Positions 20,602-62,856 of a stretch of DNA of 64,000 nt are shown piece after piece. The notes beneath the pieces were generated by a model. It searched no databases. It had not been told where the DNA came from and saw only the letters and a program-made list of their open reading frames with translations. The translations under genes and the position numbers were made by a program. Position 1 is the first letter of the stretch; each line of letters starts with the position of its first letter. Source of the stretch: Primulina eburnea (taxonomy: Eukaryota > Streptophyta > Magnoliopsida > Lamiales > Gesneriaceae). The stretch spans positions 40,096,682 through 40,160,681 of the forward strand of contig NC_133104.1 of NCBI RefSeq assembly GCF_022965805.1, written 5' to 3'.

Positions 20602-20661
20602 TATTTTATTTCCTAATTTAGTAAAAATTTTGGCGGGAACTTACTAAATATAGCACAACTC

Positions 20662-20698
<37 letters not shown>

Positions 20699-20760
20699 TA
20701 GAGTTGTGCTATATTTAGTAAGTTCCCGTCAAAATTTTACTAAATTAGGAAATAAAAAAA
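20602..20760. repeat. Near-perfect 65-bp-arm hairpin with (TA)n loop
   Basis: The left arm (20602-20668, containing GAACTTACTAAATATAGCAC) and right arm (20695-20760, containing GTGCTATATTTAGTAAGTTC) are reverse complements with about three differences over roughly 65 bp. They surround a pure TA loop at 20669-20694. The low divergence implies a young inverted duplication. If transcribed it would give a long dsRNA stem of the sort that feeds small-RNA production; that is inference. Confidence 0.85.
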
Positions 20761-24454: not shown

Positions 24455-24556
24455 CATAAACAACATCTAACTTTATTGACTTCATGCATATAAACGTGTA
24501 AACCTTTACACACCGCTGATTTTTAGTCCACCCAAATCGATTAAACGTGAAGTTAA

Positions 24557-24564
24557 CAAAAAGG
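24557..24564 (+). repeat. Left 8-bp direct repeat AACAAAAA
   Basis: AACAAAAA immediately outside the left inverted repeat recurs at 32782-32789 immediately outside the right one. This is consistent with a target-site duplication for the whole bracketed block. Confidence 0.55.
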
Positions 24565-24702
24565 GGAAATTGTCAAAAACTCCCTATTTCCATTCTCAAC
24601 CTCCTCTTTACTCCCTACCCCATTAAAACTTTGTTTCAACTCCCCATATCCCTCAAATTTCCAAGTTTGCCCTTATATATTTATTTTAAATAATTGATTT
24701 CT
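24565..24702 (+). repeat. Left terminal inverted repeat bracketing the endogenous virus
   Basis: The sequence starts GGGGAAATTGTCAAAAACTC and aligns, with scattered mismatches and short gaps, over about 138 bp to the reverse complement of 32641-32781. Shared landmarks in order are GGGAAATTG, TTACTCCCTA, ATTAAAACT, CAACTCCC, GCCCTTAT and AATTGAT. The inner edge abuts viral-side DNA. Confidence 0.65.
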
Positions 24703-24950
24703 TTTTTGTAGTAAAAGGCCCATCATGCTTCCGTAAAATAAATTGAATATTTTACCTTTTTGACTAGAGTACCACCGGGTTATATCCACCGTTTTTTACG
24801 AACTGCTCCTCACAGTCCAACCACACGATCGCAACCGATGGTTACTAAGCAGATTCCTTCAGCAATACTTAGCACAGCTCTAATTCGTTTCCTACCTTAG
24901 AGCGTACAGCAAAAGATCAATTTTTGAAAATAATACATGATAGGGGCTAA
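24703..24950 (-). other. Viral leader-side sequence or host junction, no ORF
   Basis: About 250 bp lie between the left inverted repeat and the viral poly(A) signals. They would correspond to the part of the pregenomic leader downstream of the poly(A) site, but the exact virus-host boundary cannot be seen. GATCAATTTTTGAAAATA at 24916-24933 resembles GATCAATTAAAGAAAATA at 32645-32662 near the other boundary. Confidence 0.35.
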
Positions 24951-24964
24951 GAGCAAAGATCTCT

Positions 24965-24988
24965 TTTATTCAAACACAAACATTTATT
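24965..24988 (-). terminator. Caulimovirid poly(A) signals
   Basis: Two AATAAA hexamers on the minus strand (24983-24988 and 24965-24970) lie about 165-190 nt downstream of the TATA box. This is the spacing expected for the short terminal redundancy of a pararetroviral pregenomic RNA. Confidence 0.6.
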
Positions 24989-25146
24989 TATTACATAGTA
25001 ACCTCCTGTAGAGGAGGAGAAACTTGTTTTAGCTACTTATCGTAGCTGAACTCTTAACACACATAAAACTTGAAAGAAAATATTACAACCTTGTATGAAA
25101 GAAATGGAGAAAATATTTGATGATCTTCACTTCCTTCTTTCTGCCT

Positions 25147-25154
25147 TATTTATA
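25147..25154 (-). promoter_or_regulatory. Caulimovirid pregenomic RNA promoter (TATA box)
   Basis: TATAAATA on the minus strand in the context CTTCTATAAATAAGG, downstream of the last large viral ORF and upstream of the poly(A) signals. This is the position of the 35S-type promoter in caulimovirids. The predicted start is about 30 nt further along the minus strand, near 25115-25120. Confidence 0.65.
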
Positions 25155-25247
25155 GAAGGCTTCTTCGGATTTGAACTTCGGATTTCAAATCTTCATAAGC
25201 CTTTACAGCTTGCATTGGGGACCATTTGGTGGTTGAGGGGTCCCTGT

Positions 25248-25448
25248 CTAGATTATTAATCTTGACATTAACTTCTCATCCTCCTTTATCTCTTTTAGAT
25301 ACCATTGACGATGAGTTTCCAGGATATCGGCAGTAATTTCATCTTTTTTATACTCTTTGAAATGATTTACTAACCATTTAAGAGCTTCTGCCTCTTTCCT
25401 CTTGTATGTTATTCTTCTTTTCAAAACTTTCAAATATACACGATACAT
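25248..25448 (-). CDS. Small 66-residue viral ORF of unknown role
   Basis: A charged, Lys/Glu-rich 66-residue frame downstream of the transactivator-like ORF and just upstream of the viral TATA box. No domain is recognised. It includes KRRITYKRKEAEALKWLVNH and an Ile/Leu-rich helical C-terminus. Caulimovirids of the CaMV type have no ORF here, so it is either lineage-specific or a chance frame in the promoter region. It remains open, but at 66 residues that is weak evidence of coding. Confidence 0.35.
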   Translation of the reverse strand: MYRVYLKVLKRRITYKRKEAEALKWLVNHFKEYKKDEITADILETHRQWYLKEIKEDEKLMSRLII

Positions 25449-25695
25449 TTTAAGTTTTGGTTCTGGTGTGTTAACTGGTTTCCTTTCTGTCCTTATTTAT
25501 GGATGAATTTTCGGGACCAGTTAATTTACTTTTATTCATTGGATTCCTTTTAGATTGGTGTCCAATGCTTGCTGAGTCATCCACCATTTGTTATTGATGG
25601 TCTATTTGTCCTTTACCACTAATTAGTGGTTGTCTTGTTTCTTCCACTCACATGGTAGTGGTCCTGCTTTTGTAGTGGAGGGTCACATGTCCCTT

Positions 25696-27042
25696 TTAAT
25701 TTTGTCGAGGAATCTTTGGCTTTCGGCTTCCTCGAGGAAATCGTGAATGTGGTCCATCCCCACTTGTACTGGTATCGGTAAAGTGTTTCCGATCAGATCT
25801 CGGCTTGAATCCTTTACCAAATTCCGGTTCCTTCTGGTTTTGGCATTCTGGACAGATGTTTTCAGACCATCTTCCTACATGTGCCATATTACAGAATTTC
25901 CGACGAGTTTCTTTACTTGCCGGCAGCTTGCTATTCCACAAAAGATTTCTTTTCTTTTCAAATAGATCTTCTGCAAAACTTGTTGTTTTTCCTGTCATGG
26001 TATTTAACAGGAATGATCCGTTCCCTGAATGATTGTAGAATTTGAACGGAAACTTGACTTTGTCCATCTCAGTGAGACAGACCCAAATACCCCAAGCTCT
26101 TCTGGTAGAAATGTCATCTTCAGTCATTGAAGACACTAGGGGTGTTTCTTCTGTCGGAGGGTCCTTGATAAATTTCTGGATATTTGAATCTGGCCTCCTT
26201 AGCTTGATGAAATGAAAGGCTTCGTGAGAACCTTTCCCTGCTGGTTCTGGTGCTGCACTAAAGAAGTATAGCTCCAAAACATCTCCTCTGGACAAATAAT
26301 CATTGTTTGCCCAAGTCTCGTGAACAGCTTCCTGGATCCACTTTGGTAAACCTGAGATTTCCGGAAAGCTGGGTGATGTAGTATAAACTGAGGCAAGAGC
26401 CCCAAATTCATACCAAGCTTTAACCTCCTTGGGATATGAATTAGGTTTCATCCATACCCTTGGATATTTTCCTGAAACATCAACCCTATTTGTAGCTGGG
26501 TTAATGCCAATACGTGTTTTTAATTTCTCCCAATTCTGCTGATAAACCTGGAATGGAGAAATTACACCTTCATTAGTACCAACCTTAGCTTTACCTTTGT
26601 CAATACGAGGCCTAAGGTTGATCTCTCCCTCTTCAATCCCCGAGGTGAAGGGTTGACTTGAGGACTCAAGATAAGGATCAGGAGTCTCAATTTTTGTTTC
26701 AGCCGACTCATCTCGTGATGATCCCGACTTAACACTTGTGCAAGGGGTATTTGAATCCCCCGCTACAGGTATAGAGTCCTGTACTCGAAAACTCTCCATT
26801 TGAGAAACCAGTGGTCTCTCAATGCCCTGGAGGATAGGCCTTTGCGTTACAGACCATAACTGAGTATATGCCTGTAAACATCCTGTAATTCGATCAGAGA
26901 CAATTCTCTTATCAGCTTGTTGTAGCCTTCCCGCAACTTCTGCGTTAACAGCTAACTTGTTGAACTCGGTTTGAAGCATTTCAAGGTGTTCCCTCAAATG
27001 CCTCTGCATCTTGATAATAGCATCAATGTCAATGCTGTCCAT
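25696..27042 (-). CDS. Caulimovirid transactivator/viroplasmin-like protein (ORF VI position), endogenous copy
   Basis: Intact 448-residue frame, last in the polycistronic series; it overlaps the polymerase ORF by 14 nt. Predicted features: an N-terminal helical/coiled-coil stretch (residues 1-65), a low-complexity Ser/Glu/Pro middle (95-160), a folded core (about 165-365), a Cys/His cluster C384-H388-C397-C400 that could bind zinc, and a basic Arg/Lys/Pro tail. In the family, the protein in this position forms inclusion bodies and lets ribosomes reinitiate on the polycistronic RNA. I assign the role mainly from gene order and architecture; direct motif support is moderate. Nothing in the frame is broken. 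Confidence 0.6.
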   Translation of the reverse strand: MDSIDIDAIIKMQRHLREHLEMLQTEFNKLAVNAEVAGRLQQADKRIVSDRITGCLQAYTQLWSVTQRPILQGIERPLVSQMESFRVQDSIPVAGDSNTPCTSVKSGSSRDESAETKIETPDPYLESSSQPFTSGIEEGEINLRPRIDKGKAKVGTNEGVISPFQVYQQNWEKLKTRIGINPATNRVDVSGKYPRVWMKPNSYPKEVKAWYEFGALASVYTTSPSFPEISGLPKWIQEAVHETWANNDYLSRGDVLELYFFSAAPEPAGKGSHEAFHFIKLRRPDSNIQKFIKDPPTEETPLVSSMTEDDISTRRAWGIWVCLTEMDKVKFPFKFYNHSGNGSFLLNTMTGKTTSFAEDLFEKKRNLLWNSKLPASKETRRKFCNMAHVGRWSENICPECQNQKEPEFGKGFKPRSDRKHFTDTSTSGDGPHSRFPRGSRKPKIPRQN

Positions 27043-29065
27043 CTCTTGTTAAAAAATCTGCAAGAATATTTTCATGAGATTTTATTATCATAATATCAAA
27101 AATATAATTTTGACATAAAGCTTGCCATCGTAATAATCTAGCCTTCTCCGGTTTAGACTCAATTCTATTCCTCAAAAAGGCTTTAACTTGAGTGTTATCA
27201 ACTTTCAAAGTGAATTTCTTTGCAAGTAAAAATAACGGCCATTTTTCAAAAGCCCTTTTTACTGCATAAAATTCCTTTTCGTTGATATGCCATCTTATGG
27301 CTTCTGCGTCTGAGAATAACCCACTACAATATCTGCATGGTTGTTCTCCATCTGGTGTGAGCTTTGTTAATACTGCAGCCCACCAATGATCACTGGCATC
27401 GGTATATAATACCAGATCATCCTCGTCTTGAGGAATAGCCATCTTTGGAAGATTTTTGCAAACCTTCTTTAAATGGATAAGTCCCTTTGTGTGTTCGTCT
27501 GTCCATATAAATCTAGCATCCTTTTTCAATAATGGACTGAACACCTTCCTGTGTTTTGCTAGGTTTTTAATAAACATCCCAGCAAAATTAACAACCCCTA
27601 AAAAACTTTGAAGTTGTTTCTTGTCTTTGAGATTCTCTGGAAAATTCTGCACCTTTTCTACTATGTGTTCTTGCAGAATTATTCCTGATTCATCGATTTC
27701 AATTCCGAGGAATTCAATCTTTCTTGTAGCAATGACTGCTTTCTTTTCAGATAAAACCAGTCCTTCTTTCTTGCAAACATTAGAGAAAATCTCCAAATGT
27801 TTAACATGTTCATTCATATCTTTGGATGCTATTAGAACATCGTCGATGTAAACAAACATAAACTTGAAATAATCTTTGAAAAGATTATCCATCTTTCTTT
27901 GAAATATTTGGGGTGAGTTAGCCAATCCCATTGGTAATACTTCCCAAATATAATGTCCTTGAGGTGTGGAGAAAGCTGTGAATTTCTTGCTTTCTTCCTG
28001 CATCCGAATCTGATAGAATCCAGACTTGCAATCAAATTTAGAGAATATCTTGGCATTGCGAATGCAACTAATCAAGTGTTCTCTACTAGGTATAAAATAC
28101 CCATCAAACTCCAGAATCTTATTAATTTCTTGATAATTAATAACCAATCTGGGTTTTCCTCGTTTAATTTCACCATGGTTTCTTACCAGAAAACCTGGAC
28201 TGCTATATGGTGACATACCTGCTTTGATTAATCCAAGGTCCAAATGTTCCTTGATTATAATCTGCATATCCCTCTGATCAATGATGTTCATTGGGATGGG
28301 TTTACAACGGACAAATTCATACTCTTTGCCTTCCTTGATCTTAAGGCAAGCCCTGAGTTGATTTCTGTCCCACCATGCCAAGGGATCTTCGTTATAATTT
28401 TCTTTGATCCTCTTCTTGACATCTTCCAGTGATACCTTAGATTCAAACTCTACTTCATTTGTGTGTAGAGTTATCTTAAGGCATTCTATATCTTCTGGTT
28501 GGAGTTCCTTATCTGCTCTTAACTGGAGCATTGTTTCTCCAAACCGTCTTGAATCCTTCATTTTTGGGTTCAGAAGTTTTCCTGAATCACCACGCTTGCT
28601 GCGAAACTGGATTGGCAATTTTCTGTAAAATGCCTCCCTAAGTCTCTGGACTATGATTTTGTGGGCACATGGTGTTGTGAACACTAATCTTCTAGTCTCA
28701 TTTTCTTGTGTATAGGACTTGAACATTTGTAGGAAATTATTTCCTAACAATATGTCAGCTCCTGTATCATGAAAATAAATTGGTGGTGTCTTTACCTTGT
28801 ACCAAGGTGTTTGTCCAGCACCGCCAATCATGATTTCAGTCATCTTAATCCCTTTACATAAGATTAAGATTCTTCTGGAAAAATCTCTTCCAGCAATCTT
28901 GGGTAACTCTTCTTCCAAATTATTTGGAAAAACTCCTCGTTTTGCTGTACATATTCCAGCACCTGAATCAATATATGCAGCAAAGTATTCTGCCTTATAT
29001 TGTTCATACAACATTCCTACTGGAATGTATATGGAGAATGGACTTGTGGTCATTGGATTTTCCAC
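27029..29065 (-). CDS. Caulimovirid Pro-RT-RNase H polyprotein, endogenous copy
   Basis: Intact 678-residue polyprotein, the usual length for a caulimovirid ORF V product. It has an aspartic protease (IDSGAG at 32-37 and the flap-side ILLGNNF at 105-111). The reverse transcriptase includes KPRLVINY at 304-311, FDCKSGFYQI at 344-353, LPMGLANSP at 377-385 and the catalytic YIDD at 406-409. RNase H has YTDAS at 554-558, Glu597 in INEKEFYAV, VDNTQVKAF at 622-630 and ADFLTR at 669-674. All catalytic residues I can check are present. It makes DNA from the pregenomic RNA and matures itself. The start overlaps the movement-protein ORF by 16 nt, the end overlaps the transactivator ORF by 14 nt. No stop or frameshift interrupts it. 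The absence of an integrase confirms a pararetrovirus rather than an LTR retrotransposon. Confidence 0.95.
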   Translation of the reverse strand: MENPMTTSPFSIYIPVGMLYEQYKAEYFAAYIDSGAGICTAKRGVFPNNLEEELPKIAGRDFSRRILILCKGIKMTEIMIGGAGQTPWYKVKTPPIYFHDTGADILLGNNFLQMFKSYTQENETRRLVFTTPCAHKIIVQRLREAFYRKLPIQFRSKRGDSGKLLNPKMKDSRRFGETMLQLRADKELQPEDIECLKITLHTNEVEFESKVSLEDVKKRIKENYNEDPLAWWDRNQLRACLKIKEGKEYEFVRCKPIPMNIIDQRDMQIIIKEHLDLGLIKAGMSPYSSPGFLVRNHGEIKRGKPRLVINYQEINKILEFDGYFIPSREHLISCIRNAKIFSKFDCKSGFYQIRMQEESKKFTAFSTPQGHYIWEVLPMGLANSPQIFQRKMDNLFKDYFKFMFVYIDDVLIASKDMNEHVKHLEIFSNVCKKEGLVLSEKKAVIATRKIEFLGIEIDESGIILQEHIVEKVQNFPENLKDKKQLQSFLGVVNFAGMFIKNLAKHRKVFSPLLKKDARFIWTDEHTKGLIHLKKVCKNLPKMAIPQDEDDLVLYTDASDHWWAAVLTKLTPDGEQPCRYCSGLFSDAEAIRWHINEKEFYAVKRAFEKWPLFLLAKKFTLKVDNTQVKAFLRNRIESKPEKARLLRWQALCQNYIFDIMIIKSHENILADFLTRDGQH

Positions 29066-30285
29066 ATTTTATCTTCTGCCATAAACTCCATTCCATATTC
29101 TAGACGTTTCCAAGGTTTATGTTCCTCGAGAAACTCTAGCCCAAGAATCAATCGTTCTGATTCTTTTCCTGGAATTCCTTGAATATGAACCTCCAATTCT
29201 CCGATATTAATCAGTCCTTGGTAAGTTCCTATCATCGGTTGTTCCAAATAGTATATTGAATTACAAGGAAATTGATTCCTTTGTTTTGTAATATCAAATA
29301 CTATTTCTACTTCCTTCCAACCTTCTGGGCATCTGAGCTTTCCTATTGTAGAAAAACTTTTCAACTCCTGTTGGGTTTCTATGACAGGCTTTTTATCCCA
29401 TCTGTAACTTGTAATTCTATCTCCTTGAAAAGATAGTCTTCTTGGTTCCAGTCTAAGACTTTGATTTCTCTGTAGAATCGGTTTGTCTTGGATCTGGATA
29501 TCTGTTTCCTGTATTAAAGGAAACTCAATTCTTTCTGGATAAATTGCCTGCGCAACTTTTCCAAATATCTCAGGTATTTCAATAAACTCGTTTCTAATAA
29601 ACAATTCAGAATGATGTGTATTAGATAGAGCATATGAAATCTGATAGGTAATAGAATATGGTCTATTGCCTTCCTTCATCAACCTTTTTTCCTTGAAGTT
29701 CTGATGTAATGTCAAGGCTCGGCTGAAATCTCGATCTGCCAGGTTGTAGGCTATCCTTGGATAGATTACTCCTACAATTTTTCCTGCACAGAGGTTTCCT
29801 GAGATTGTTCCCAGTACTGAATCTTGTAGATTCCCCATTCTTTTATCGCATATGGCGATATCAATTGGTGAATCTATCCCTTCTTTGAAAGTAGCCTTTA
29901 TCATAATCTGGATTGCTCCTATATGAATCCAGGACATAGTCCTTGCTACTTCTATCTTGAGTTTTTGTAATTCCTCCTTTATTTCTTCGGAAGGAATTAA
30001 CTGCATCTCCATTCTATTTCCTGTAAGTTCCATTGGGATTGCCATTTCCCTTCTAGAAACTTTATAGATTAGATGATGCTTTCTGTTTCTTAGGCCAAGA
30101 CTTCCTAAGAACTTTTCTACCTGTCCTGCAGAGAAACCTTGATATCTCTGTAGACTCGGATTTTCTCTCATGATTCTTTGAACCATGTTATGAGATATTG
30201 TTGTCTGGCTAAAAAACCCAGACAAATCTTCATGTGTTTCGTGTCGAAACACCTCGTCTTCAGTCAGATTCCGATTCTGTTCCAT
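29050..30285 (-). CDS. Caulimovirid movement protein (30K superfamily), endogenous copy
   Basis: Intact 411-residue frame. Residues about 118-226 hold the 30K core: GAIQIMIKATFKEGIDSP, then the conserved Asp in ICDKR (D147), LADRDF, and PYSITYQISYALSNTHHS. Members of this family coat plasmodesmata as tubules for cell-to-cell spread. The start overlaps the coat-protein ORF by 26 nt and the end overlaps the polymerase ORF by 16 nt. The C-terminal 180 residues extend past the core; near residues 370-385 the string LILGLEFLEE resembles the flap-side (I/L)LGxxFL motif of retropepsins, without a DSG active site. Placement after, not before, the coat protein is unlike cauliflower mosaic virus. Confidence 0.85.
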   Translation of the reverse strand: MEQNRNLTEDEVFRHETHEDLSGFFSQTTISHNMVQRIMRENPSLQRYQGFSAGQVEKFLGSLGLRNRKHHLIYKVSRREMAIPMELTGNRMEMQLIPSEEIKEELQKLKIEVARTMSWIHIGAIQIMIKATFKEGIDSPIDIAICDKRMGNLQDSVLGTISGNLCAGKIVGVIYPRIAYNLADRDFSRALTLHQNFKEKRLMKEGNRPYSITYQISYALSNTHHSELFIRNEFIEIPEIFGKVAQAIYPERIEFPLIQETDIQIQDKPILQRNQSLRLEPRRLSFQGDRITSYRWDKKPVIETQQELKSFSTIGKLRCPEGWKEVEIVFDITKQRNQFPCNSIYYLEQPMIGTYQGLINIGELEVHIQGIPGKESERLILGLEFLEEHKPWKRLEYGMEFMAEDKMWKIQ

Positions 30286-31702
30286 CAGATTCTTCCTGAC
30301 TTAAGACTTCCTCTTCTTCATATATACTCTCATCTGAGGCAATGTCCTCAAATTGGTATACTTGAATGAGATCTTGGTAATAAACTGCTTCTTCAATATC
30401 CGGAGTAGGATCAAAACGTTTAATACCTCTTTTCTCATTTTCTGGACAATTGGTCGAGATATGACCTCTTGCTCCACATGTCCAGCAATTACAATCCTTG
30501 AAACTTTCATTGGCTCTAGTATGAGCTCTTCTGAAAGTTTTCTTTGTAGGTGTTCTTCCTGTGCTTCGAGATGAACTTGATGCCTGGGATGATATCCTAC
30601 TTCTCGATGGTCCGCTTCTTTGTCCAGATTTATAAGATCTGGCTTTCTGTCTAGACCATACGGTTCTTGGTTTCCAAGAACTTCTTCCACTTCGTGCATA
30701 AGGATGAGTCCTAAAACTTTTCCTTTTATGTTTCTGTGGTTTACTTCCAATAATTGTTGGAAGATCATTTTCCTTACAACACAAAGGAGTTCTTTTGTTG
30801 ATACTCCTTAGTCGTTTGTAATTCTTTTGTAATGCTGCCATGTGACACCATTCTGCTAATTTCCCTTTAAGGAAAGAGGCTCTTCTTGCCAATGTATCTG
30901 GATTACCAGGTACGTATTCCCCTATGAGCATTTCTCTCCACGGGCTTGGCATTTTTGCGAAGAAAAGCTGCATAGCTATATCTTCTTCGACTCCTGAATT
31001 CCATCTATATTTGGTGAATAACATAATGTATTCATCTACCAAACATATATCATGTAATTCAAGACTATGCAGAGCTTGAGTATATTTTTTCTTCTTCTCT
31101 GTATTTTGACTGTTGAAATAGTCTACCCCTATAAAGTGTGCTTTGAATAGGGTAGCCATCTTTCCAGCGATCTCACTAAGAGATTCTCCAACTAGGACTG
31201 ACTCTTTCATGTCTGCTGAAGTCATGTCCCAAGCAATTTTTACTGATCCCATAAGACTCATTTCCAAAAGTTTAATGAATCCTTCTTTGTTGAGATCAAG
31301 TGTTCCTGCTGCAATTCTCATAGCAGATGTCCAATCGTCTATGAGATCTTCTCTGTTTTTGAAGTCCAATACATCAAGGTTAAGCATAACCCCGTAAGGA
31401 TGTATAGGATCTAAAACAGTTTTCCCATAGGGTGTTTGGTGCAAAGGGATTTGAGTTCTCCTTGCCCTTGTTCCCGCTGGGTGTGATCCTCCACCAGTAT
31501 GGAAATCAGTCTGAGATTCTCTCATATTTATATTATGAGATCCCATACTTTCCCTTGGTGGTTCCTGGGAAGATGACCAGGTTATTGCAGGTGGTGTTTC
31601 ACCTACTGCTGTATTCATCTTTAGATCTACTACTTTGAGATTTGCGAAAGATTCCGCAAGCTCTTGTAGATCCTCCAAACCAATCCTTTCTAGAGTTGTC
31701 AT
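30260..31702 (-). CDS. Caulimovirid coat protein with CCHC zinc knuckle, endogenous copy
   Basis: Intact 480-residue frame. Residues about 95-300 form the capsid core, including YGVMLNLDVLDFKNREDLID and WREMLIGEYVPG. A strongly basic Arg/Ser/Lys region (320-400) precedes the knuckle C406-x2-C409-x4-H414-x4-C419 (CWTCGARGHISTNC). The C-terminus (455-480) is very acidic (Glu/Asp/Ser), as in caulimovirid precapsid proteins. The basic patch and knuckle package the pregenomic RNA. The start codon shares one base with the previous ORF's stop in a TGATG arrangement at 31700-31704, the classic reinitiation geometry. No disruption is seen. Confidence 0.9.
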   Translation of the reverse strand: MTTLERIGLEDLQELAESFANLKVVDLKMNTAVGETPPAITWSSSQEPPRESMGSHNINMRESQTDFHTGGGSHPAGTRARRTQIPLHQTPYGKTVLDPIHPYGVMLNLDVLDFKNREDLIDDWTSAMRIAAGTLDLNKEGFIKLLEMSLMGSVKIAWDMTSADMKESVLVGESLSEIAGKMATLFKAHFIGVDYFNSQNTEKKKKYTQALHSLELHDICLVDEYIMLFTKYRWNSGVEEDIAMQLFFAKMPSPWREMLIGEYVPGNPDTLARRASFLKGKLAEWCHMAALQKNYKRLRSINKRTPLCCKENDLPTIIGSKPQKHKRKSFRTHPYARSGRSSWKPRTVWSRQKARSYKSGQRSGPSRSRISSQASSSSRSTGRTPTKKTFRRAHTRANESFKDCNCWTCGARGHISTNCPENEKRGIKRFDPTPDIEEAVYYQDLIQVYQFEDIASDESIYEEEEVLSQEESDGTESESD

Positions 31703-32073
31703 CAGATCAATTTCTTTTCTGAGACAGATTTGATTAGATTGATCATCTTTTCTTCTTCAGTTAAAGGTTTTGACACCACTCTGGCCTTCCCTTGTTGATG
31801 TAACAAAGGTTCGGTACCAAAGGATGGTGGTAACCAGCCTCCTGAAGTTCTTCTACTAGAACTTGGTTGTTGTTCTAGTTTCTGTATTCTTGTTTGAATA
31901 TCCTTTAAGATCTCAAGAATTTCTTCTTGTTTCTCTAGGACCTTTTCAATCCTTTGAGGTACATAATATAGCATATTGCCATAATTTTGTACCGTTTTCT
32001 GTATTTCTCTAAGATCCAGAGAGAGCTTAGAGGAGTCTGGTACTATCTCCAGAAATTTATTATTCTGAATCAT
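31702..32073 (-). CDS. Virion-associated-protein-like small coiled-coil ORF, endogenous copy
   Basis: Intact 123-residue frame just upstream of the coat protein. Residues about 20-68 form a predicted coiled coil (heptad-like IEKVLEKQEEILEILKDIQ), followed by a Ser/Pro/Gly linker and a short helical C-terminus. Caulimovirid virion-associated proteins (ORF III products) are of this size, have an N-terminal coiled coil and precede the coat protein. The assignment rests on size, position and coiled coil, not on sequence identity. Confidence 0.6.
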   Translation of the reverse strand: MIQNNKFLEIVPDSSKLSLDLREIQKTVQNYGNMLYYVPQRIEKVLEKQEEILEILKDIQTRIQKLEQQPSSSRRTSGGWLPPSFGTEPLLHQQGKARVVSKPLTEEEKMINLIKSVSEKKLI

Positions 32074-32120
32074 AAATTTTTACCTGAGGGTGCTGTTGCT
32101 TCCCTTCGTAGATCTTCTGT

Positions 32121-32318
32121 TTATACAGATCCATTGTTCTCTGAAGAATTTCTTCTGAGTAGATTTTGAAGTATGTTTTTACGGTTCTTTAAACCTTGTA
32201 AACGCATACCTTTCGTTCTGAGTTCAGTGAAGCATGTACTTCGCTGTAATTCTTGTTCTAATTGAATTATTTCTAGGGAAATAAGTTCAATTTCGAGCTG
32301 GATGGTAGTCCCTGGCAT
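32121..32318 (-). CDS. Small viral ORF (65 residues), unknown role
   Basis: A 65-residue, Leu/Ile/Glu-rich, probably helical protein, separated from the preceding 71-residue ORF by two bases and from the next by 47 bases. Tight packing in the viral polycistron supports it being real. No family is recognised. Confidence 0.5.
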   Translation of the reverse strand: MPGTTIQLEIELISLEIIQLEQELQRSTCFTELRTKGMRLQGLKNRKNILQNLLRRNSSENNGSV

Positions 32319-32320
32319 AT

Positions 32321-32536
32321 TTAACAGATCATTGAAGATCTGGTCTTTTCGGCCTGTAAGAGTCTACCTTTTGTGTATGCAAGGTTTTGCAAACACTGCT
32401 GTCTTTCATCAGGAGATAAATTTCCTTTGTTCTCCTGTTTCTGATATCTAACAATAGTTAGATAAACTTGTGTATATTCCAAAATATTGGAATAGTTCTT
32501 GTAAATTATTCTCCTCGAACTAAAGTTCGGATTCAT
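32321..32536 (-). CDS. First viral small ORF (71 residues), unknown role
   Basis: A 71-residue frame, the first ORF downstream of the primer-binding site (73 nt of spacing). It is Gln/Tyr/Asn-rich with a basic character; no domain is recognised. Caulimoviruses often have a small dispensable ORF VII at this position. Confidence 0.5.
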   Translation of the reverse strand: MNPNFSSRRIIYKNYSNILEYTQVYLTIVRYQKQENKGNLSPDERQQCLQNLAYTKGRLLQAEKTRSSMIC

Positions 32537-32608
32537 AATTTTTTCGAAATTCTCCTTCTCATATATTTAATTACTAGTAATAATAAAATTTTCGTGTTTG
32601 AAATAAAT

Positions 32609-32627
32609 TAACCATGCTCTGATACCA
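32609..32627 (-). other. Caulimovirid tRNA-Met primer-binding site
   Basis: On the minus strand TGGTATCAGAGCATGGTTA, complementary to the 3' end of plant initiator tRNA-Met. It primes minus-strand DNA synthesis and conventionally marks position 1 of the circular viral genome. It lies upstream of every viral ORF and about 14 bp from the right inverted repeat. Confidence 0.9.
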
Positions 32628-32640
32628 TTTTGTGAAGCGC

Positions 32641-32781
32641 GGAGGATCAATTAAAGAAAATAGAGAATAAGGGTAGTTTTGTCAATTCTATAGGTTTAGG
32701 GAGTTAAAAGAGAGTTTTTGATGGCTAGGGAGTTAGGAACAAGTTAAGTTTGGGTTTAGGGATTTAGGAGCAATTTTCCCT
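32641..32781 (-). repeat. Right terminal inverted repeat bracketing the endogenous virus
   Basis: The reverse complement begins AGGGAAAATTGCTCC and matches the left repeat at 24565-24702 through to ACCCTTATT and AATTGATCC. The inner edge is within about 15 bp of the viral primer site. Confidence 0.65.
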
Positions 32782-32789
32782 AACAAAAA
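32782..32789 (+). repeat. Right 8-bp direct repeat AACAAAAA
   Basis: Perfect copy of 24557-24564, directly outside the right inverted repeat. Because it is A-rich, coincidence cannot be excluded. Confidence 0.5.
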
Positions 32790-34364: not shown

Positions 34365-34373
34365 TTTTATATA

Positions 34374-34541
34374 GACAAAAACTAGTGTGAGACGGTCTCA
34401 CGGGTCGAATTTGTGAGACGGGTCTCTTATTTGGGTCATCCATGAAAAAGTATAACTTTTTATGCTAAGAATATTACTTTTTATTGTGAATATGGTAGGA
34501 TTGACCCGTCTCACATATTAATATCCGAATGAGACTCATTC
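34374..34541 (+). mobile_element. GAGACGGTCTC MITE copy 1, Mutator-like
   Basis: 168-bp palindromic element from GACAAAAACT to GACTCATTC with GTGAGACGGTCTCAC near one end and the degenerate complement near the other. Perfect 9-bp duplication TTTTATATA at 34365-34373 and 34542-34550. Confidence 0.85.
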
Positions 34542-35768: not shown

Positions 35769-36446
35769 GGACATGATTGTGAATAGAAATAGAAATGTAA
35801 TAAAATTGTGATTAATAGTTGTATTCATGACTCTACTAGAGGAAAAGTAAGTTGAATTGAGCACTCATTGCCGGCACGCGTCATTTACATTTTTTAAAAA
35901 CACATATTCCTTCATTTGATTTGAAGAGGAAACATAATAAAGAAAACATTTTTATGGAATGATTGTTATCTTAGAAACTCCAAATAAATTTTAGAAATCG
36001 AAATTGACATTTCTCAATATTATTGTGGTGAAAAATCAAAATCAAAATCAAACTGAATAACTTGATCGTTTTTCTTAGAAAAAACCGAATGGTATTACTT
36101 TGCAAATAAAATAAAAAATAATATTTTCTGGCATGTAATATGAACATTTTTCATTTTTTGTTCTATATTAATTAATTTACGATTTTAGTCAACCAATATG
36201 TATTTTTCTAATTTTTATTCTTTTATAACCGAAGTGCTGACGTGTGGACTAAAATTGTGATCTTGTCAATAACATTTTCAAAAATAAAAATATACAAGTT
36301 ACATTATACAAATATTACTACCCTTAAAAGTAAAATCGACTGATAATATTATTCAATAGAAGCTTGCAAAATCAAATAAAAGGAGAGTCGGATGGTCTTC
36401 ATCCAAGGTTTGGAATTAGGTTGACCAGCCTCAATAATTTTAATTT

Positions 36447-36627
36447 GAGTGAGTCTCATGTGATACCGTCTCACGAATCATAATCTGTGAGGCGGGTCAA
36501 CCCTACCCATATTCACAATAAAAGTGATACTCTTAGCATAAAAAGTAATACTTTTGCATGGGTGACCCAAATAAGAGATCCGTCTCACAAATACGACCCG
36601 TGAGACCGTCTCACACAAGTTTTTGTC
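36447..36627 (-). mobile_element. GAGACGGTCTC MITE copy 2, Mutator-like
   Basis: 181-bp copy in inverse orientation from GAGTGAGTCTC to AAGTTTTTGTC. Perfect 9-bp duplication TTTTAATTT at 36438-36446 and 36628-36636. Confidence 0.85.
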
Positions 36628-36980
36628 TTTTAATTTTGAATCGATATTAATTAATATAACTAAATAATAGTTTTTGACAATTATGAATTTCATGTCGGTA
36701 CCGGGACCCAATATTTTACTCTGATTCGTCCCCATTTTCAACATCCGCCCAATTGCATTAATTAACGTTTCATTAATGCCAATGTTTATATATTATTAAT
36801 AATTAATAATTAATAAACAAACAGCTTTTTCCAATGAATTAAAAATTAAATTAATTCTCTTTGCGAGTCTGTGTCCAAGGAATCTAGCCAAGTCTTTCCA
36901 TGACCAAACAGAACATCAATTCTGTAAATGAATCAACTCCACCTTAGATATATATATCCAAGATTTAAATAAGGACCAAC

Positions 36981-37511: not shown

Positions 37512-37690
37512 AACAAAAAATTGTGTGAGACGGTCTCGCACGTCGTATTTTGTGAGACTGGTCTCTTATTTGAATCATCCATGAAAAAAGTATTACTTTT
37601 TATATTAAGAGTATTACTTTTTATTGTGAATATCGATAAGATTGACCCGTCTCACAGATAAAAATTCGTGAGACCGTCTCATGCGTGCCG
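37512..37690 (+). mobile_element. GAGACGGTCTC MITE copy 3, end truncated
   Basis: Carries TGTGTGAGACGGTCTC, the paired ATTACTTTTTAT motifs and GACCCGTCTCACAG in family order; the right terminus GAGACTCACTC is missing. Boundaries are approximate. Confidence 0.65.
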
Positions 37691-39618: not shown

Positions 39619-39800
39619 ATAAAAACTCTTGTGAGACGGTCTCATAGATCAATTTCGTGGGTCGAATATCTTATTTGGACCATCCATAAAAAAAATATTA
39701 TTTTTTATGCTAAGAATATTATTTTTTATTATGAATATCAGTATGTTTGACATGTCTCACAGATAAATATTCGTGAGACCGTCTCATAAGAGACCTGCTC
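39619..39800 (+). mobile_element. GAGACGGTCTC MITE copy 4
   Basis: Contains TGTGAGACGGTCTCATAG, the mirrored central TATTATTTTTTAT motifs, CGTGAGACCGTCTCATAAG and the GAGACCTGCTC end. A target duplication was not clear. Confidence 0.65.
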
Positions 39801-40462
39801 TATATTTGAAACATGGTAGTACCACTTTCTTTTCTTTCTGATAAGTTATTTTGATTTTTTTTGAAAAAAAAAAATCTTGTTGGAGTTTGTTGCCAGAATT
39901 TTATTAGGTTAGGGTACAAAGTACTTGTGGTATCTAAATTGTAAAAATTTTGAAGGATATGTGTTGGCATTTAGAAGCAGAGATGACGATAGGTACGAGT
40001 ATATCGACGCCGGATTAAATCCAACCTATTTTGATATTTAATAGTACTTGATAGTGTGTTACAACTTTTCTTTGGATATTTTTTTCGCTATAATATTACA
40101 AGTTAAAAATAAAAATAGATTGTAAATATATAAATTTAAATATATACATTTAATTTAATTGTTTGGTCAGTATGCCTCATCGACCCATGTTATTAATAGT
40201 TATTAGCAACATAGCAGGGTGCCACATCATCATGTCCATTTTTTCCTCTTCATATTTATGTGGACGTGAGTGTCACTTTATTGGTGGACTCAAAAATGAG
40301 CACGATTGATAAACAATAGAACAAAAATATATGTATATGTATGTGTGTATTGCTTGAAAAAAAAATATATACATATAATGTGGGATAACGGTTATAACCC
40401 GAAGCGACTTTTATTGACTACATCATGAGTTATTTTAAATAACTATGATTTAATGTCTTCAA

Positions 40463-40645
40463 GGCAAAAACTTGTGTGAGGCGGTCTCACAGGTCGTATT
40501 TTGTGAGACGGATTTTTTATTTGGGTCATTCATGAAAAAATATTATTTTTTATCTTAAGAGTGTTAATTTTTATTGTAAATATCCGTATGGTTGACATGT
40601 CCCACATATAAATATTCGTAAAACTGTCTCACAAGAGACTTACTC
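40463..40645 (+). mobile_element. GAGACGGTCTC MITE copy 5
   Basis: 183-bp copy from GGCAAAAACTTG to GAGACTTACTC. The flanks TGTCTTCAA and ATGTCTCAA are an imperfect 9-bp duplication. Confidence 0.75.
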
Positions 40646-40778
40646 ATGTCTCAAACGAAAAATAATTAAGCTACTTGATGATAAATTTATTCGTCCCAAT
40701 ATATATCCTAACTTTTATAGGTGTGCATATTTCACTAAATTCGTATTAAATTCTTTATTTTGACTTTAACTTGGGTGA

Positions 40779-40858: not shown

Positions 40859-43800
40859 GAAATCAACTTAAATTTAAATAATATCAACATTCAACACTAA
40901 TTTTGTTTTAAAAAAATATCAAAAGAAATTTATTTTCTCTCTATGATTCCCCACTCATTTAACCGAGTCTACTCGATAATTAATAACATTATTTATCAAT
41001 CTCTCCTTTATCTCATTTACCAAACTATACCTTAATAGATAAGTTAAAGAAACATTCAATTTTCACTTTATATTATGCAAAAAAGTAAAAATAAATAAAT
41101 AATGACTATATGATACAACTTATTTGAAAAAATAAAAAAATGGAGGGGATTGGTGTGAAATTGGCGTTTTCATTGGACGAGGCGATTCTATTTTCGAAAG
41201 GTTTTAGGTGGTGGAGGTCAAGCTTAAATATTTTTAAAAGGTCATATACACTTAAATCATTGAACTCTAAAGAAATAAGAATTAAGTCAATAAACAAATA
41301 ATTCTGTTTGAATTATATTTCCCAAAGAATGTAAACCTTTAACTCTCCACTCCGGCGGGCGAAGGGATTGGAATATGTCGGCCATTTCTAAAATTTAATC
41401 TAATTTAATACATTACGCACATTTTTCCATCAATGGCAATTGTAGCTCAACATGTTCCATTCTTCTTCATTCTTCCCAACACCATTCATTTTCTCTTACC
41501 TAACTTTATGAATTCATCTTTATATATATAGATAACATCTCTTTTAGTTGACCATGCATTAGCTTTAGAATTATAAAGTTAAGGTAAATTCTCATATTTT
41601 TAAGTAAGTAAATATGATTTAGAAATTAACCCAGGCAGTTGTAAAATTAAGGAGAAATTACAAATTTCTTTTAAGTTGACATGTTTTAGTTTTAATCATA
41701 TAACTTATCAATATTTTGTTTTCGTCCAGTAGCTTTAAATATTTTTGGATTTAGTTTTTTCCTTCAAAAGCCAGTAAACTCATCAAAAATTCTTTATTTG
41801 GCAACGATGATCTCTTAATTAGCTTCTGCAGTAAGAATAAACTTAATAAATCTATACAAAATCAAAGATAAAAATGAAGCAAAACTACACCAAATATTTA
41901 AAATATGAGGAAAAAAGCTTATTGTTTCTTTTTTTTTTTTTTTTTTTGTTTAGATAGATTTTAATGTGTATAATATATGTTTTATTATAGTCACACAAGT
42001 CATATAAGAAAGCATCCGTATCAAATAAGTAATATGCAGTTAGTTTAATGACTTTCGGTGAAACAAATGACCGAATCCCAAAATAAAAAAAAAAAATCCA
42101 AGCGATTGGATGAAAACTAAACATTAATAAGTTACATGATTAAAACAACAAACAAGTCAACTTACTTGATTAAAATTGATATTTTCTCTAATATTCATAT
42201 GGTGCGTGAAATTTTGTAACTGTTTTAATTTGATATAAAATAGTTAATTTTCAATTAACCCGCTCGTGTGATTAATAACGTTATTTTGCCTTAATTTTTT
42301 ACGCTTTGTTGCATATAAGCCGTTTAATAATTTTTTAATATTAACTTAACTAACCTATCATTTCATTATATTAATGTTCAATTACACAAACCCGAGAAAC
42401 TAACTATTGGTTTAGCTAAGTAATTAAAACATCCATTAGATAAAAATTAGTCGTGGAACACTTATTATGATCTGAATCTATTATCTTTTTCCCTTTATAA
42501 GTATCTAATCAAACTTTTTTTGTAAATTGTTAAATAAAATAATATTTTCTTTTGACAACAGTATATTAAATAAAATACATAAAAATATTATTAAATAAAT
42601 ATTTATTTGAATTTAAAGTACCCCACGTTTAGATTGCTCGGGAAAAATAGATTTTTTGAGCTTCAAGTGGACGAAACGAGCATTATAAATTATTGGGGAC
42701 TCAGTTTGACGACATGAAATACAAGTGATTGAGATATCTGCATTAATTGCTGGTGGTCAAGTTGAAGGTCATTGATTTCTTTTTTATTATTATTATTACA
42801 ACATACGCGAAATATTCAAATTTGTGGAGCCAGCTAATCTAGTAGAGGGTGAGATCGCTGAGCTACAAGCCCGATCTCCAAATGTCATTGATTTCAACTA
42901 CGGACATCTCCCTTCATTACTGATTTGTTCATGGTGTGTTTGCTGATATATGCATCATCATAGTATAAAAGTGTGTAAACGACTCGGATACATAACTTAA
43001 TTTATGTAATTCGATCGAGATTATAGAGTTTATATTTTTAGTGTGTATGTATAGTTTTTAATTCGACCCGACTCCATCGGTTTATTTATGTATATGGCCG
43101 CCTGATTAAGATTTTTTTATTATTATTATCAAGAATATAAACTATTTGTGTGCAATTCATTCAATCATATCAGTTAAATGTGATTTTTTTATCCTTCAAA
43201 TGATAATTTCCCGTAATTAGTTACTTTCGACGTTCTAATAATATGGGTTTTCTCTTTGGGCCTAACGTAGGGCCCGATTAGATGTTTTCTGTATCAAATA
43301 ACTGGGCTTACACTGTTGTGAGAGATTTGTTCCACTTGCTACCTTCGACAAGGGGGCGAATTGGGTTGGGTCTCGACCCGATTTGGTAAGACTCATTAAA
43401 TATATTATTAAATTGAATCTGTATATCATTGGAAAAAAATAAAAAATAACCAAGGCAATACCACTTTCCATTAAGGTTGCATTCCGGCGAACAAATTCGA
43501 CGGCAAGATTTTGGCTTTTCCGGGCAGGGAAGCGGGTGGAAGTGTGGATTTGAATCTGTATATCATGAAAAACAACAGTTGTAAGTACTGAATTTGAGAC
43601 CCGGACGAACAAGATCTCCGAACACAAGAGAATAAACAAACTATTGGTTGATTTGGGTAAATCTTAACTAGTCATTTTTTAAGTCACGTTATGGATTTCA
43701 TATATATATGTCAATATTAAGTCATTTCAAATATTTTCTTTAAATACTCTCTCAAATCTAAACTTTCAAATCCAAACAAAACCTTAGAGTATCATCCCAA

Positions 43801-51539: not shown

Positions 51540-51900
51540 GGCAAAAATTTGTGTGAGACGGTCTCACAGATCGTATTTTGTGAGACGGATATTTATTTGG
51601 ATAATTCATGAAAAAGTATTACTTTTTTGAGTGAGTCTCATGTGAGACCGTCTCACGGATACTAATATGTGAGACGGGTCAACTCTACCCATATTCACAA
51701 TAAAAAGTAATACTCTTAGAATAAAAAATTATACTTTTTCATGTATGACTCAAATAAGAGATTCGTCTCACAAATTTGACTCGTGAGACCGTCTCATACA
51801 AGTTTTTGCCTACTTTTTATGCTAAGATTAGTGAATATGAGTAGGATTGACCCGTCTCACGTATTGAGATCCGTAAGATGGTCTCACATAATTCTTACTC
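51540..51900 (+). mobile_element. GAGACGGTCTC MITE copy 8 (outer), split by copy 9
   Basis: Outer copy runs 51540-51628 and 51811-51900, interrupted by an inverted sibling. Its flanks TTCCTAATG (51531-51539) and TTCCTAATA (51901-51909) form a 9-bp duplication with one mismatch. Confidence 0.85.
51629..51810 (-). mobile_element. GAGACGGTCTC MITE copy 9 (inner, nested)
   Basis: 182-bp copy from GAGTGAGTCTC to AAGTTTTTGCC, inserted into copy 8 in the opposite orientation. Flanks TACTTTTTT (51620-51628) and TACTTTTTA (51811-51819) are a 9-bp duplication with one mismatch. Confidence 0.88.
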
Positions 51901-61426: not shown

Positions 61427-62856
61427 TTCGATATGTGTTCACTACTTTTTGCTGTGAAATTATAGTGCTAAAATTGAAAGAGGGGAAAGAGATGCTGATT
61501 TGAGGAAAACGTTCTTACGACGTCGCATGTAAGGGTTAACAACGATTTCATTATTGAATCGCTGCCTTTGATATATTCAACGGCGTGGTTGGGTTAAATT
61601 GCATACACAGCTTTCTTTTGAAATTTCAAAAAGCTAATAATTTCTAGTAAAAATGATTATGTCTCTTGTGACACGGTCTCACGAATTTTTATCTGTGAAA
61701 CGAGTCAACCTTACCGATATTCAAAATAAAAAGTAATATTCTTAACATAAAAAGTAATACTTTTTCATAAAAGACTCAAATAAGAGATCAGTCTTACAAA
61801 ATACGACTCGTGAGATCGTTTCTCATAAGTTTTTTGCCTTTAAAAATTAGACATGTAACTTTTATGTTTTTTTTTTAAATAAATTCAAATAATCTAAACT
61901 TCATAGTTTTAGATACATGCATTTTTAATAATTTCCATAAATATGATGAAAAATTATTTTGTATGCAATAAGAGATATTAAAATAATATTTTTATAGGGG
62001 TCTACAAGCAATTTTTAAATAAAAAAATAGGGGTTTGGCGCTTATTTATATTTCACATGGGTTATCAGCTCTTTTTGAGATTTTACAAGGGGATTTATGC
62101 AATTTATCCATGGCATTTTTATTGTTTATATAATTTAAACCAAAAAAATCAAAAAAATCAAATTTTTTATGCTTTTTTCTTGACATCGAGTATCCACCCA
62201 ACCCAATTGGATAAACCCCTATTTGGGAATTTCGGGTTCGGGTATATTTTAAGGTCGGGTTTCATGTTCCCGGCCAAAGGCCCAAAACATTGTCGGAAAC
62301 CCGCCTATATTTTTCATAATTTTAAGTTTTTTTTTAGGTATTGCATTGTTTGTAGGATAGGACAATCGCACCATTGGTAATTGAATGATATAATATTTTA
62401 CTTCTTATATCTATTCTTTAGTAATTGGACTACCTAATCCTCACTTTACTTTTCAACCTTCGTCCATTGTCCAACATTTGCTTTCCTTTGTTTTGCGTTT
62501 ACTTTCCTCTCACAAGTACTAATTTCTTTGACCGTCCGTTCTTGCTGTATTTCAGAGCCTCAAAGGTTTTGGATTGTGAGGAAGAATGGTTGTGGATTGT
62601 TAGTAACCCAATATCAGATGGCTTTTATAAATTTAAAGGAAAAAAAGAACTCGAGAGCTAGGCACGATAATTACAAAACAAACTAAATCATTGGTTCATT
62701 AATCAATCCTGAAAACATTTCCAGAAAAGATAAACAAACAAGGGCTGAACGATGAATCTATAAGAACATGTCCATAAAATATTAATAACATATATAGAAG
62801 GTCGAAAATCAGTAGAAACAAATGCATAAAATCACAACCACCAACACAAAAAAGTA
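61427..62856. other. Spacer between NDUFB8 and LDH, with a MITE
   Basis: Contains the NDUFB8 promoter side, a MITE copy (next entry) and the LDH 3' UTR at the right. No gene was recognised. A GGTTCGGG/CCCGGCC-bearing patch at about 62220-62300 may be an old repeat. Confidence 0.5.
61655..61838 (-). mobile_element. GAGACGGTCTC MITE copy 10
   Basis: 184-bp copy in inverse orientation ending AAGTTTTTTGCC. Flanks AGTAAAAAT and TTTAAAAAT are an imperfect 9-bp duplication. It lies about 230 bp upstream of the NDUFB8 start codon. Confidence 0.7.

What the first reader, a model, noticed from the sequence alone, without database searches (positions are those of the whole stretch)
24557..32789. Endogenous pararetrovirus bracketed by inverted repeats and an 8-bp direct repeat
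About 138-bp inverted repeats lie immediately outside the viral DNA on both sides and are flanked by AACAAAAA on both sides. Either a caulimovirid integrated in the loop of a pre-existing TIR/fold-back transposon, or the whole TIR-virus-TIR block was mobilised by a DNA transposase, which would be a virus-in-transposon composite. The inner edges fit the virus very closely on the primer-site side (about 15 bp).
Basis: partly seen in the sequence, partly recalled or inferred. Interest (0 to 1): 0.9.

Follow-up and report, generated by a model that had tools for sequence, protein, structure and literature searches.

The report
Plant virus moving as a transposon
In this plant genome a whole DNA virus lies between the two ends of a Mutator-type jumping gene, and this virus-plus-ends unit has inserted intact at dozens of unrelated places, which suggests that a virus family thought to enter chromosomes by accident has acquired a way of inserting itself.

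Summary
An endogenous caulimovirid (CP, MP, PR-RT-RNase H and TAV-like frames, tRNA-Met-type primer site) lies between 136/135-bp inverted repeats, 69% identical. The flanking duplication is 9 bp (TAACAAAAA), Mutator-like. In the window's own genome (probably Primulina eburnea) the block recurs: of 47 other copies and the window copy examined, 44 showed both ends, and 37 of these 44 have an exact 9-bp target duplication (34 different words). So the virus did not simply land in an old fold-back; TIR-virus-TIR is the mobile unit. An RT piece of 20 copies is 98.3-100% identical to the window. Variants shared between copies show strong purifying selection, above all in the movement protein (25 synonymous, 5 nonsynonymous), while private variants there look neutral. 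Passive cargo does not predict this; a functional virus lineage inserting repeatedly does. One diverged relative (79% over 1.8 kb), perhaps two of three, has GGG ends and its own 9-bp duplication. No transposase was recognised in the element, so a host MULE transposase in trans is inferred. Not shown: a circular form, a virus-free element with these ends, the transposase.

The parts
24554..24562 (.). left 9-bp target-site duplication TAACAAAAA
   Evidence: exact match to 32781-32789; other copies have their own 9-bp duplications
24563..24698 (+). left terminal inverted repeat, 136 bp, starts GGGGAAATTGTC
   Evidence: 69% identical to the right arm; 24557-24730 has at least 40 matches at 96-100% in the genome, all 40 scored ones running to the inner end of the query
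24699..25698 (-). viral non-coding region with a TATA-like motif (25148-25154) and AATAAA (24965-24970), read on the minus strand
   Evidence: motif scan, which also found one more TATA-like and two more AATAAA matches; aligned in the 20 other copies compared
25699..27048 (-). 450-codon open frame, transactivator/viroplasmin-like (ORF VI type)
   Evidence: AlphaFold model of mean pLDDT 62; 12 BFVD matches with E<=0.001, 10 named as caulimovirid ORF VI, transactivator or inclusion-body proteins and 2 unnamed, but TM-scores (query-normalised) only 0.29-0.38
27032..29068 (-). protease - reverse transcriptase - RNase H frame (679 codons)
   Evidence: Pfam Peptidase_A3, RVT_1, RT_RNaseH, RT_RNaseH_2
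29053..30300 (-). movement protein frame (416 codons)
   Evidence: Pfam MP PF01107, E 1.3e-31; nearest relatives
30263..31756 (-). coat protein frame (498 codons)
   Evidence: Pfam Caulimovir_coat_dom PF22909, E 1.4e-6, 29.1 bits against a cut-off of 27; CCHC-like motif in the translation
31705..32079 (-). 125-codon open frame, function not assigned
   Evidence: no Pfam match at or above a curated cut-off
32616..32627 (-). primer-binding site TGGTATCAGAGC (tRNA-Met type, recalled)
   Evidence: 19 exact genomic matches of the primer site with the 10 nt before it
32628..32645 (.). 18 nt between primer site and right arm, shared by the other copies
   Evidence: all 40 scored matches start at query base 1, in the primer site, and run through it
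32646..32780 (-). right terminal inverted repeat, 135 bp (GGGAAAATTGCT read inward)
   Evidence: most other copies end GGGGAAATTGCT
32781..32789 (.). right 9-bp target-site duplication TAACAAAAA

Best explanation
This is one copy of a composite mobile element: a caulimovirid genome, opened just upstream of its primer-binding site, bounded by Mutator-type terminal inverted repeats. SHOWN: the block TIR-virus-TIR sits as a unit at unrelated, AT-rich sites, nearly always within a 9-bp target duplication; the scored matches at either end cross the same TIR/virus junction, so the fusion behind this family happened once; none of the five frames scanned is a recognised transposase. INFERRED: a MULE transposase supplied in trans by the plant acts at the GGG ends; the lineage is kept going by functional viral replication and movement (hence selection on MP and RT), and each chromosomal copy decays after insertion. 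The simplest cycle is an episomal viral circle in which the two ends lie back to back in the leader before the primer site and serve as the transposase substrate; excision of chromosomal copies could supply such circles. The share of insertions coming from episomes rather than from chromosome-to-chromosome transposition is not known.
For: 47 other copies examined; both ends seen in 43 of them plus the window. Exact 9-bp duplications in 37 of 44; besides, one exact 10-bp (e7, read from the printed flanks), one exact 9-bp with a 1-nt shift (copy 10), three with 1 mismatch (8, 11, 16), two with none (21, 34). Chance of a 9-bp match in sites of that composition about 7e-4. 47 left flanks compared: 1 pair with a 28-nt out-of-register match. 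From the left end inward 1.67 kb are 99.6-99.8% identical in 6 of 7 loci, 94% in the seventh. RT piece 98.3-100% identical to the window in 20 copies. Selection: MP shared variants 25 synonymous/5 nonsynonymous (omega about 0.07, p 8e-11), private 18/49 (omega 0.96), Fisher p 3.9e-7; RT shared 10/4 (0.15, p 8e-4), private 19/22 (0.44). Mean pairwise divergence non-coding 2.0%, RT 0.9%, MP 1.2%. A diverged relative (79% over 1,845 bp) has GGG ends about 8.9 kb apart and exact TAGTTTTTA; a second has GGG ends and T9. The right arms of all three relatives found score higher against the window's right arm than all 100 shuffles. TAV-like, not transposase-like, matches of the 450-aa frame.
Against: No joint of the two outer ends in the genome (0 matches to an exact two-word pattern with 0-30 nt between), so a circular form has no direct support. 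Arms only 69% identical, below cut-offs used to annotate MULEs (75-80%). No transposase and no virus-free element with these ends found; the pattern searches meant for this did not complete. RT private variants are not neutral (omega 0.44), and the shared/private contrast is significant for MP only (RT Fisher p 0.13). Some copies are already broken: MP stops in 4 of 21 and 1-nt gaps in 3 of 21, an RT stop in 1 and a 17-nt RT gap in 1. Only 20 of 47 other copies and only RT, MP and non-coding pieces were compared. Relatives: the middle of the elements was not read; the second has a T-run duplication and arms no more complementary than 63 of 200 shuffles; the third showed no left arm or duplication.
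Confidence: 0.78

Rival explanations
1. Passive composite: a MULE captured one integrated virus genome once (as a Pack-MULE captures genes) and a MULE transposase then multiplied the block as dead cargo.
For: Transposon ends and 9-bp duplications at 37 of 44 copies with both ends; a single fusion joint; no circular joint found; MULEs are known to carry foreign DNA (passages of PMC3310237, PMC8277862).
Against: Cargo should evolve neutrally along the whole tree; shared variants are 25 synonymous to 5 nonsynonymous in MP and 10 to 4 in RT. A relative with 79% similar viral DNA keeps the same kind of ends, so the association persisted long.
Confidence: 0.18
2. Virus integrated by end joining into the centre of a pre-existing fold-back MULE at this locus only.
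For: Virus lies at the symmetry axis; the empty fold-back would form one hairpin (z -3.7, 0 of 200 shuffles as good); palindromes are proposed break sites for caulimovirid integration (PMC10377300 passages).
Against: Dozens of other places have the same block with the same inner joints and their own duplications.
Confidence: 0.02
3. The inverted repeats are the two arms of the viral leader hairpin, viral by origin, that a transposase happens to accept.
For: If the outer ends were joined, the arms would form a long hairpin 18 nt before the primer site, where caulimovirids have a leader hairpin (recalled); the arms diverge together with the virus in relatives.
Against: Mismatches show no G-U bias for the viral sense strand (7 against 10); the ends look like MULE termini (recalled); no joint of the outer ends found.
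Confidence: 0.12

Closest known systems
Teratorn (piggyBac-herpesvirus fusion of medaka; PMC5601938, abstract and outline seen)
   Same: A DNA virus genome is fused with a DNA transposon and moves as one.
   Different: Teratorn is 180 kb, belongs to piggyBac and retains transposition activity (abstract); here 8.2 kb, a reverse-transcribing plant virus, Mutator-type ends, no recognised transposase, and purifying selection on the movement protein.
Pack-MULEs / Pack-TIRs (PMC3310237, PMC8277862; passages seen)
   Same: Non-autonomous TIR element with target duplications carrying foreign DNA between its ends.
   Different: Reported cargo is small (median 224 bp for animal Pack-TIRs, 305 bp for Pack-MULEs, passage); here a complete virus genome whose genes show purifying selection.
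Endogenous caulimovirids (review PMC10377300; passages seen)
   Same: Gene content, primer site, many dispersed copies in a plant genome.
   Different: The review calls the integration mechanism speculative and names break repair and LTR-retrotransposon hitch-hiking, plus a suggestion of a hijacked transposon-derived integrase; uniform 9-bp duplications with long TIRs do not appear in the 12 passages seen.

Membership tests
Mutator-like element (MULE) | 8-11 bp (typically 9) target-site duplication | tested here: met
   exact 9 bp in 37 of 44 copies with both ends; definition from passages of PMC6446971 and PMC3310237
Mutator-like element (MULE) | long terminal inverted repeats (about 100-500 bp) | tested here: met
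   136/135 bp
Mutator-like element (MULE) | high identity of the two arms (75-80% cut-offs of annotation pipelines) | tested here: not met
   69%; a pipeline threshold, not a biological limit
Mutator-like element (MULE) | MURA-type transposase, own or supplied by a family member | tested here: inconclusive
   none among the five frames of the element scanned; a partner elsewhere in the genome could not be looked for, as the searches meant for it did not complete
hAT element | 8-bp duplication and short TIRs (recalled) | tested here: not met
   9 bp in 37 of 44 copies, long TIRs
Caulimoviridae | MP, CP, aspartic protease, RT, RNase H | tested here: met
   Pfam matches above curated cut-offs
Caulimoviridae | tRNA-Met primer-binding site | tested here: met
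   TGGTATCAGAGC at 32627-32616; assignment to tRNA-Met recalled
Caulimoviridae genus (Solendovirus/Cavemovirus-like gene order) | CP-MP-RT-TAV order | tested here: inconclusive
   order seen here; genus comparison recalled; no reference tree made
Pack-MULE | non-autonomous MULE carrying a copied host gene fragment | tested here: not met
   payload is a virus genome, not a host gene fragment

The most novel reading that the evidence does not exclude
A lineage of plant pararetroviruses, a group thought to lack any integration machinery of its own, carries Mutator-type transposon ends as a lasting part of its genome and uses the host's MULE transposase to insert its complete genome into chromosomes with a 9-bp target duplication, while still evolving as a functional, moving virus: a reverse-transcribing virus that integrates as a DNA transposon.
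Probability: 0.6. Interest if true: 0.96.

Novelty: new variant of a known kind. Interest (0 to 1): 0.92.

Why it matters
How integrase-less pararetroviruses came to fill plant genomes is an open question (the review PMC10377300, passages, calls the mechanism speculative). Here the mechanism leaves a readable signature, uniform ends plus a 9-bp duplication, that can be looked for in other plant genomes and tested with a reporter flanked by the ends alone. It would be a plant, reverse-transcribing counterpart of Teratorn, and a route by which a transposon gains horizontal spread and a virus gains heritable insertion. Among the papers listed by the searches (an open-access library; one search listed 20 of 87; titles and abstract starts seen) no title or abstract start describes a caulimovirid bounded by DNA-transposon TIRs.

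Tried and rejected
Rejected: hAT (8 bp) reading of the duplication; virus landing in a fold-back at this locus only (other copies); arms kept as an RNA hairpin (no G-U bias); long-range pairing of the leader pieces including 24964-24994 and 32577-32607 (32 of 500 shuffles as good); terminal redundancy of the viral ends (98 of 500); transposase identity of the 450-aa frame (TAV-like). Dead ends: viral-contig scans with RT and with an MP alignment found no relative; Rfam and tRNA scans of the window empty; PDB fold search, none of 139 matches with E<=10 reached E<=0.001. Before the genome search answered I favoured the fold-back-landing reading; the other copies overturned it.

Rows dropped or not counted: copies 1, 30, 33 and e1 (one end not in the fetched stretch); 3 of the 11 further right ends (on C981, C620, C458) were not examined (for C981 the requested stretch lies beyond the contig). 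20 of the 47 other copies were used for the RT, MP and non-coding comparisons; they were picked from the first 39 with both ends seen. Codons with a gap were left out of the counts.
Full report
What is there. The window copy runs from 24563 to 32780 (8,218 bp) between two copies of TAACAAAAA (24554-24562, 32781-32789). Its arms are 136 and 135 bp, 94 of 136 paired positions identical, with three CTCCCTA-type motifs at the same offsets in each arm; the similarity is far above chance (94 against a shuffle maximum of 62 in 1000; BLASTN E 1.6e-4). The duplication is 9 bp, not 8, and the 9-bp reading also gives the better terminal match (GGGGAAATTG / GGGAAAATTG). Between the arms, on the minus strand, lie the primer site, a 125-codon frame, CP, MP, PR-RT-RNase H and a 450-codon frame. 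These five frames are open in this copy. The 450-aa frame has no Pfam family at its cut-off, but a model of middling confidence (mean pLDDT 62) matches caulimovirid transactivator/viroplasmin proteins: 12 BFVD matches at E<=0.001, 10 named as such or as inclusion-body proteins, 2 unnamed, with low query-normalised TM-scores of 0.29-0.38. None of the five frames scanned looks like a transposase; shorter or overlapping frames were not scanned.

Host. MP relatives (120 of 348 listed) are headed by an unnamed 88% sequence and are mostly Sesamum; TAV-frame relatives come from several other Lamiales and, as short pieces, from two Primulina species. A neighbouring NPF gene is nearest, among named proteins, to Rehmannia (79%). 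Contig C5 of the window's genome has the same length (41,820,699) as the contig listed for the Primulina eburnea protein P0330, so the host is probably P. eburnea (inference).

The block is repeated. After many busy answers the genome search ran: the left end with its inner edge has at least 40 matches of 96-100% (40 scored of 238 candidates), all reaching the inner end of the query; the right end with the primer site has at least 40 of 93-100% (of 340 candidates), all starting at the primer site. Seven fetched loci match the window from the end inward for 1.67 kb, six at 99.6-99.8% and one at 94%; outside the end they share nothing with the window's flank but dispersed and simple repeats.

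Each copy has its own target duplication. I fetched the edges of the 39 other copies (with loci) and of 8 of the 11 further right ends. Of these 47 plus the window, 44 showed both ends. Exact 9-bp duplications directly at the ends: 37 of 44, 34 different words by my count of the printed rows. One more has an exact 10-bp duplication (e7, read from the printed flanks), one an exact 9-bp duplication with the right end shifted by 1 nt (copy 10), three have one mismatch (8, 11, 16), two have none (21, 34; the right end of 34 is truncated). The 28 exact duplications tabulated are 94% A+T, with a lean to T at the first two and A at the last two positions. Copies 20, 28 and 31 keep exact duplications although 3 to 8 kb of extra DNA lie inside. 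Among 47 left flanks of 150 bp only one pair shares a short, out-of-register match, so these are not segmental duplicates. Of the 33 right ends found in the first stretches, 22 lie within 15 bp of the place predicted from the window copy; of the 11 others, 8 are 42-211 bp further and 3 are 80-332 bp nearer.

Age and selection. In a 1-kb RT piece, 20 other copies are 98.3-100% identical to the window; one of the 21 has a stop and one a 17-nt gap. Mean private changes per copy are 0.22-0.32% in the three regions, about 0.3-0.5 million years at the recalled plant rate of 7e-9 per site and year. Variants were split into private (one copy) and shared (two or more), with expectations weighted by the observed mutation spectrum. 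MP: private 18 synonymous, 49 nonsynonymous (omega 0.96); shared 25 and 5 (omega 0.07, p 8e-11). RT: private 19 and 22 (0.44); shared 10 and 4 (0.15, p 8e-4). Shared against private differs for MP (Fisher p 3.9e-7) but not significantly for RT (p 0.13). MP stops occur in 4 of 21 copies, one each, and 1-nt gaps in 3 of 21. The non-coding region diverges twice as much as RT (2.0% against 0.9%). The pattern is that of a lineage replicating with functional proteins, whose inserted copies then decay. A movement protein has no known use in transposition, so selection on it points to infection (inference).

The association is not recent. An exact search for the primer site with the 10 nt before it gave 19 places, three of them outside the main family. 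Around the primer site and inner right arm these are 84-86% similar to the window over 69-170 bp; on the other side the first is 79% similar over 1,845 bp, the second 85% over 565 and 67% over 327, the third 86% over 537 and 81% over 303. The first (C3, 20.91 Mb) has GGG ends about 8.9 kb apart, complementary arms (0 of 200 shuffles as good, though that alignment also runs into the flanks) and exact TAGTTTTTA on both sides; the second (C3, 48.70 Mb) has GGG ends about 7.9 kb apart and nine T on both sides, which is weaker, and arms no more complementary than 63 of 200 shuffles; in the third no left arm or duplication was seen (distances computed from it). The right arms of all three still score above all 100 shuffles against the window's right arm, the left arms only in the first two and barely. 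The middle of these relatives was not read.

Mechanism. Shown: unit insertion of the whole block with 9-bp duplications, one fusion joint for the family, no recognised transposase. Inferred: a MULE transposase in trans, and an episomal phase in which the two outer ends lie back to back before the primer site. Against the latter, no genomic sequence matches the two outer ends joined within 0-30 nt (exact pattern), and the arms show no sign of being kept as an RNA hairpin. I could not look for a virus-free element with these ends, because those searches did not complete.

Comparison. Passages of PMC6446971 and PMC3310237 give 8-11 or 9-11 bp duplications and long TIRs as MULE marks, which are met; the annotation cut-offs of 75-80% arm identity are not. 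PMC8277862 (passages) explains, in animals, single-copy Pack-TIRs by gap filling and multicopy ones by template switching followed by transposition; the latter may describe the founding event here. Teratorn (PMC5601938, abstract and outline) is the nearest precedent in kind. PMC10377300 (passages) calls caulimovirid integration speculative and lists break repair and LTR-element hitch-hiking, plus a cited suggestion of a hijacked transposon-derived integrase; this element gives a concrete further route.

Noticed in passing
window 41640-42195: Another fold-back of about 520 bp with arms only about 65% alike, palindromic up to its axis (DNA fold z -5.7); not related to the element's arms.
   Followed up: partly
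window 20604-20757: 154-bp near-perfect palindrome (95%) with a (TA)n core, MITE-like.
   Followed up: no
window 34372-34535, 36444-36628, 37515-37681, 39621-39800, 40462-40646, 51626-51811, 61661-61843: Dispersed repeat of about 170 bp in at least seven copies, with inverted-repeat-like ends (GTCTCA...TGAGAC).
   Followed up: partly
P0327, P0330: Predicted host proteins of Primulina tabacum and P. eburnea begin with 48-64 residues of the viral TAV-like frame (96% and 81% identical), then continue mostly with other sequence: gene models fused with virus fragments.
   Followed up: partly
G000 copies 19, 26, 27, 35-39, e3, e4, e5, e7, e8: A subset of copies has a left end of the GGGATTTT type instead of GGGAAATT; of the 8 with measured length, 7 are 42-211 bp longer than the window copy and one 80 bp shorter: at least two subfamilies. 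Copy 4, with the GGGGAAATT end, is also 189 bp longer.
   Followed up: partly
G000 C3:20.91 Mb, C3:48.70 Mb, C11:7.24 Mb (L161-L166): Diverged relatives of the element with strongly changed arms but GGG ends on both sides in two of three.
   Followed up: partly
G000 copies 20, 28, 31: Copies with 3 to 8 kb of extra DNA inside but exact outer 9-bp duplications, apparently nested insertions.
   Followed up: no
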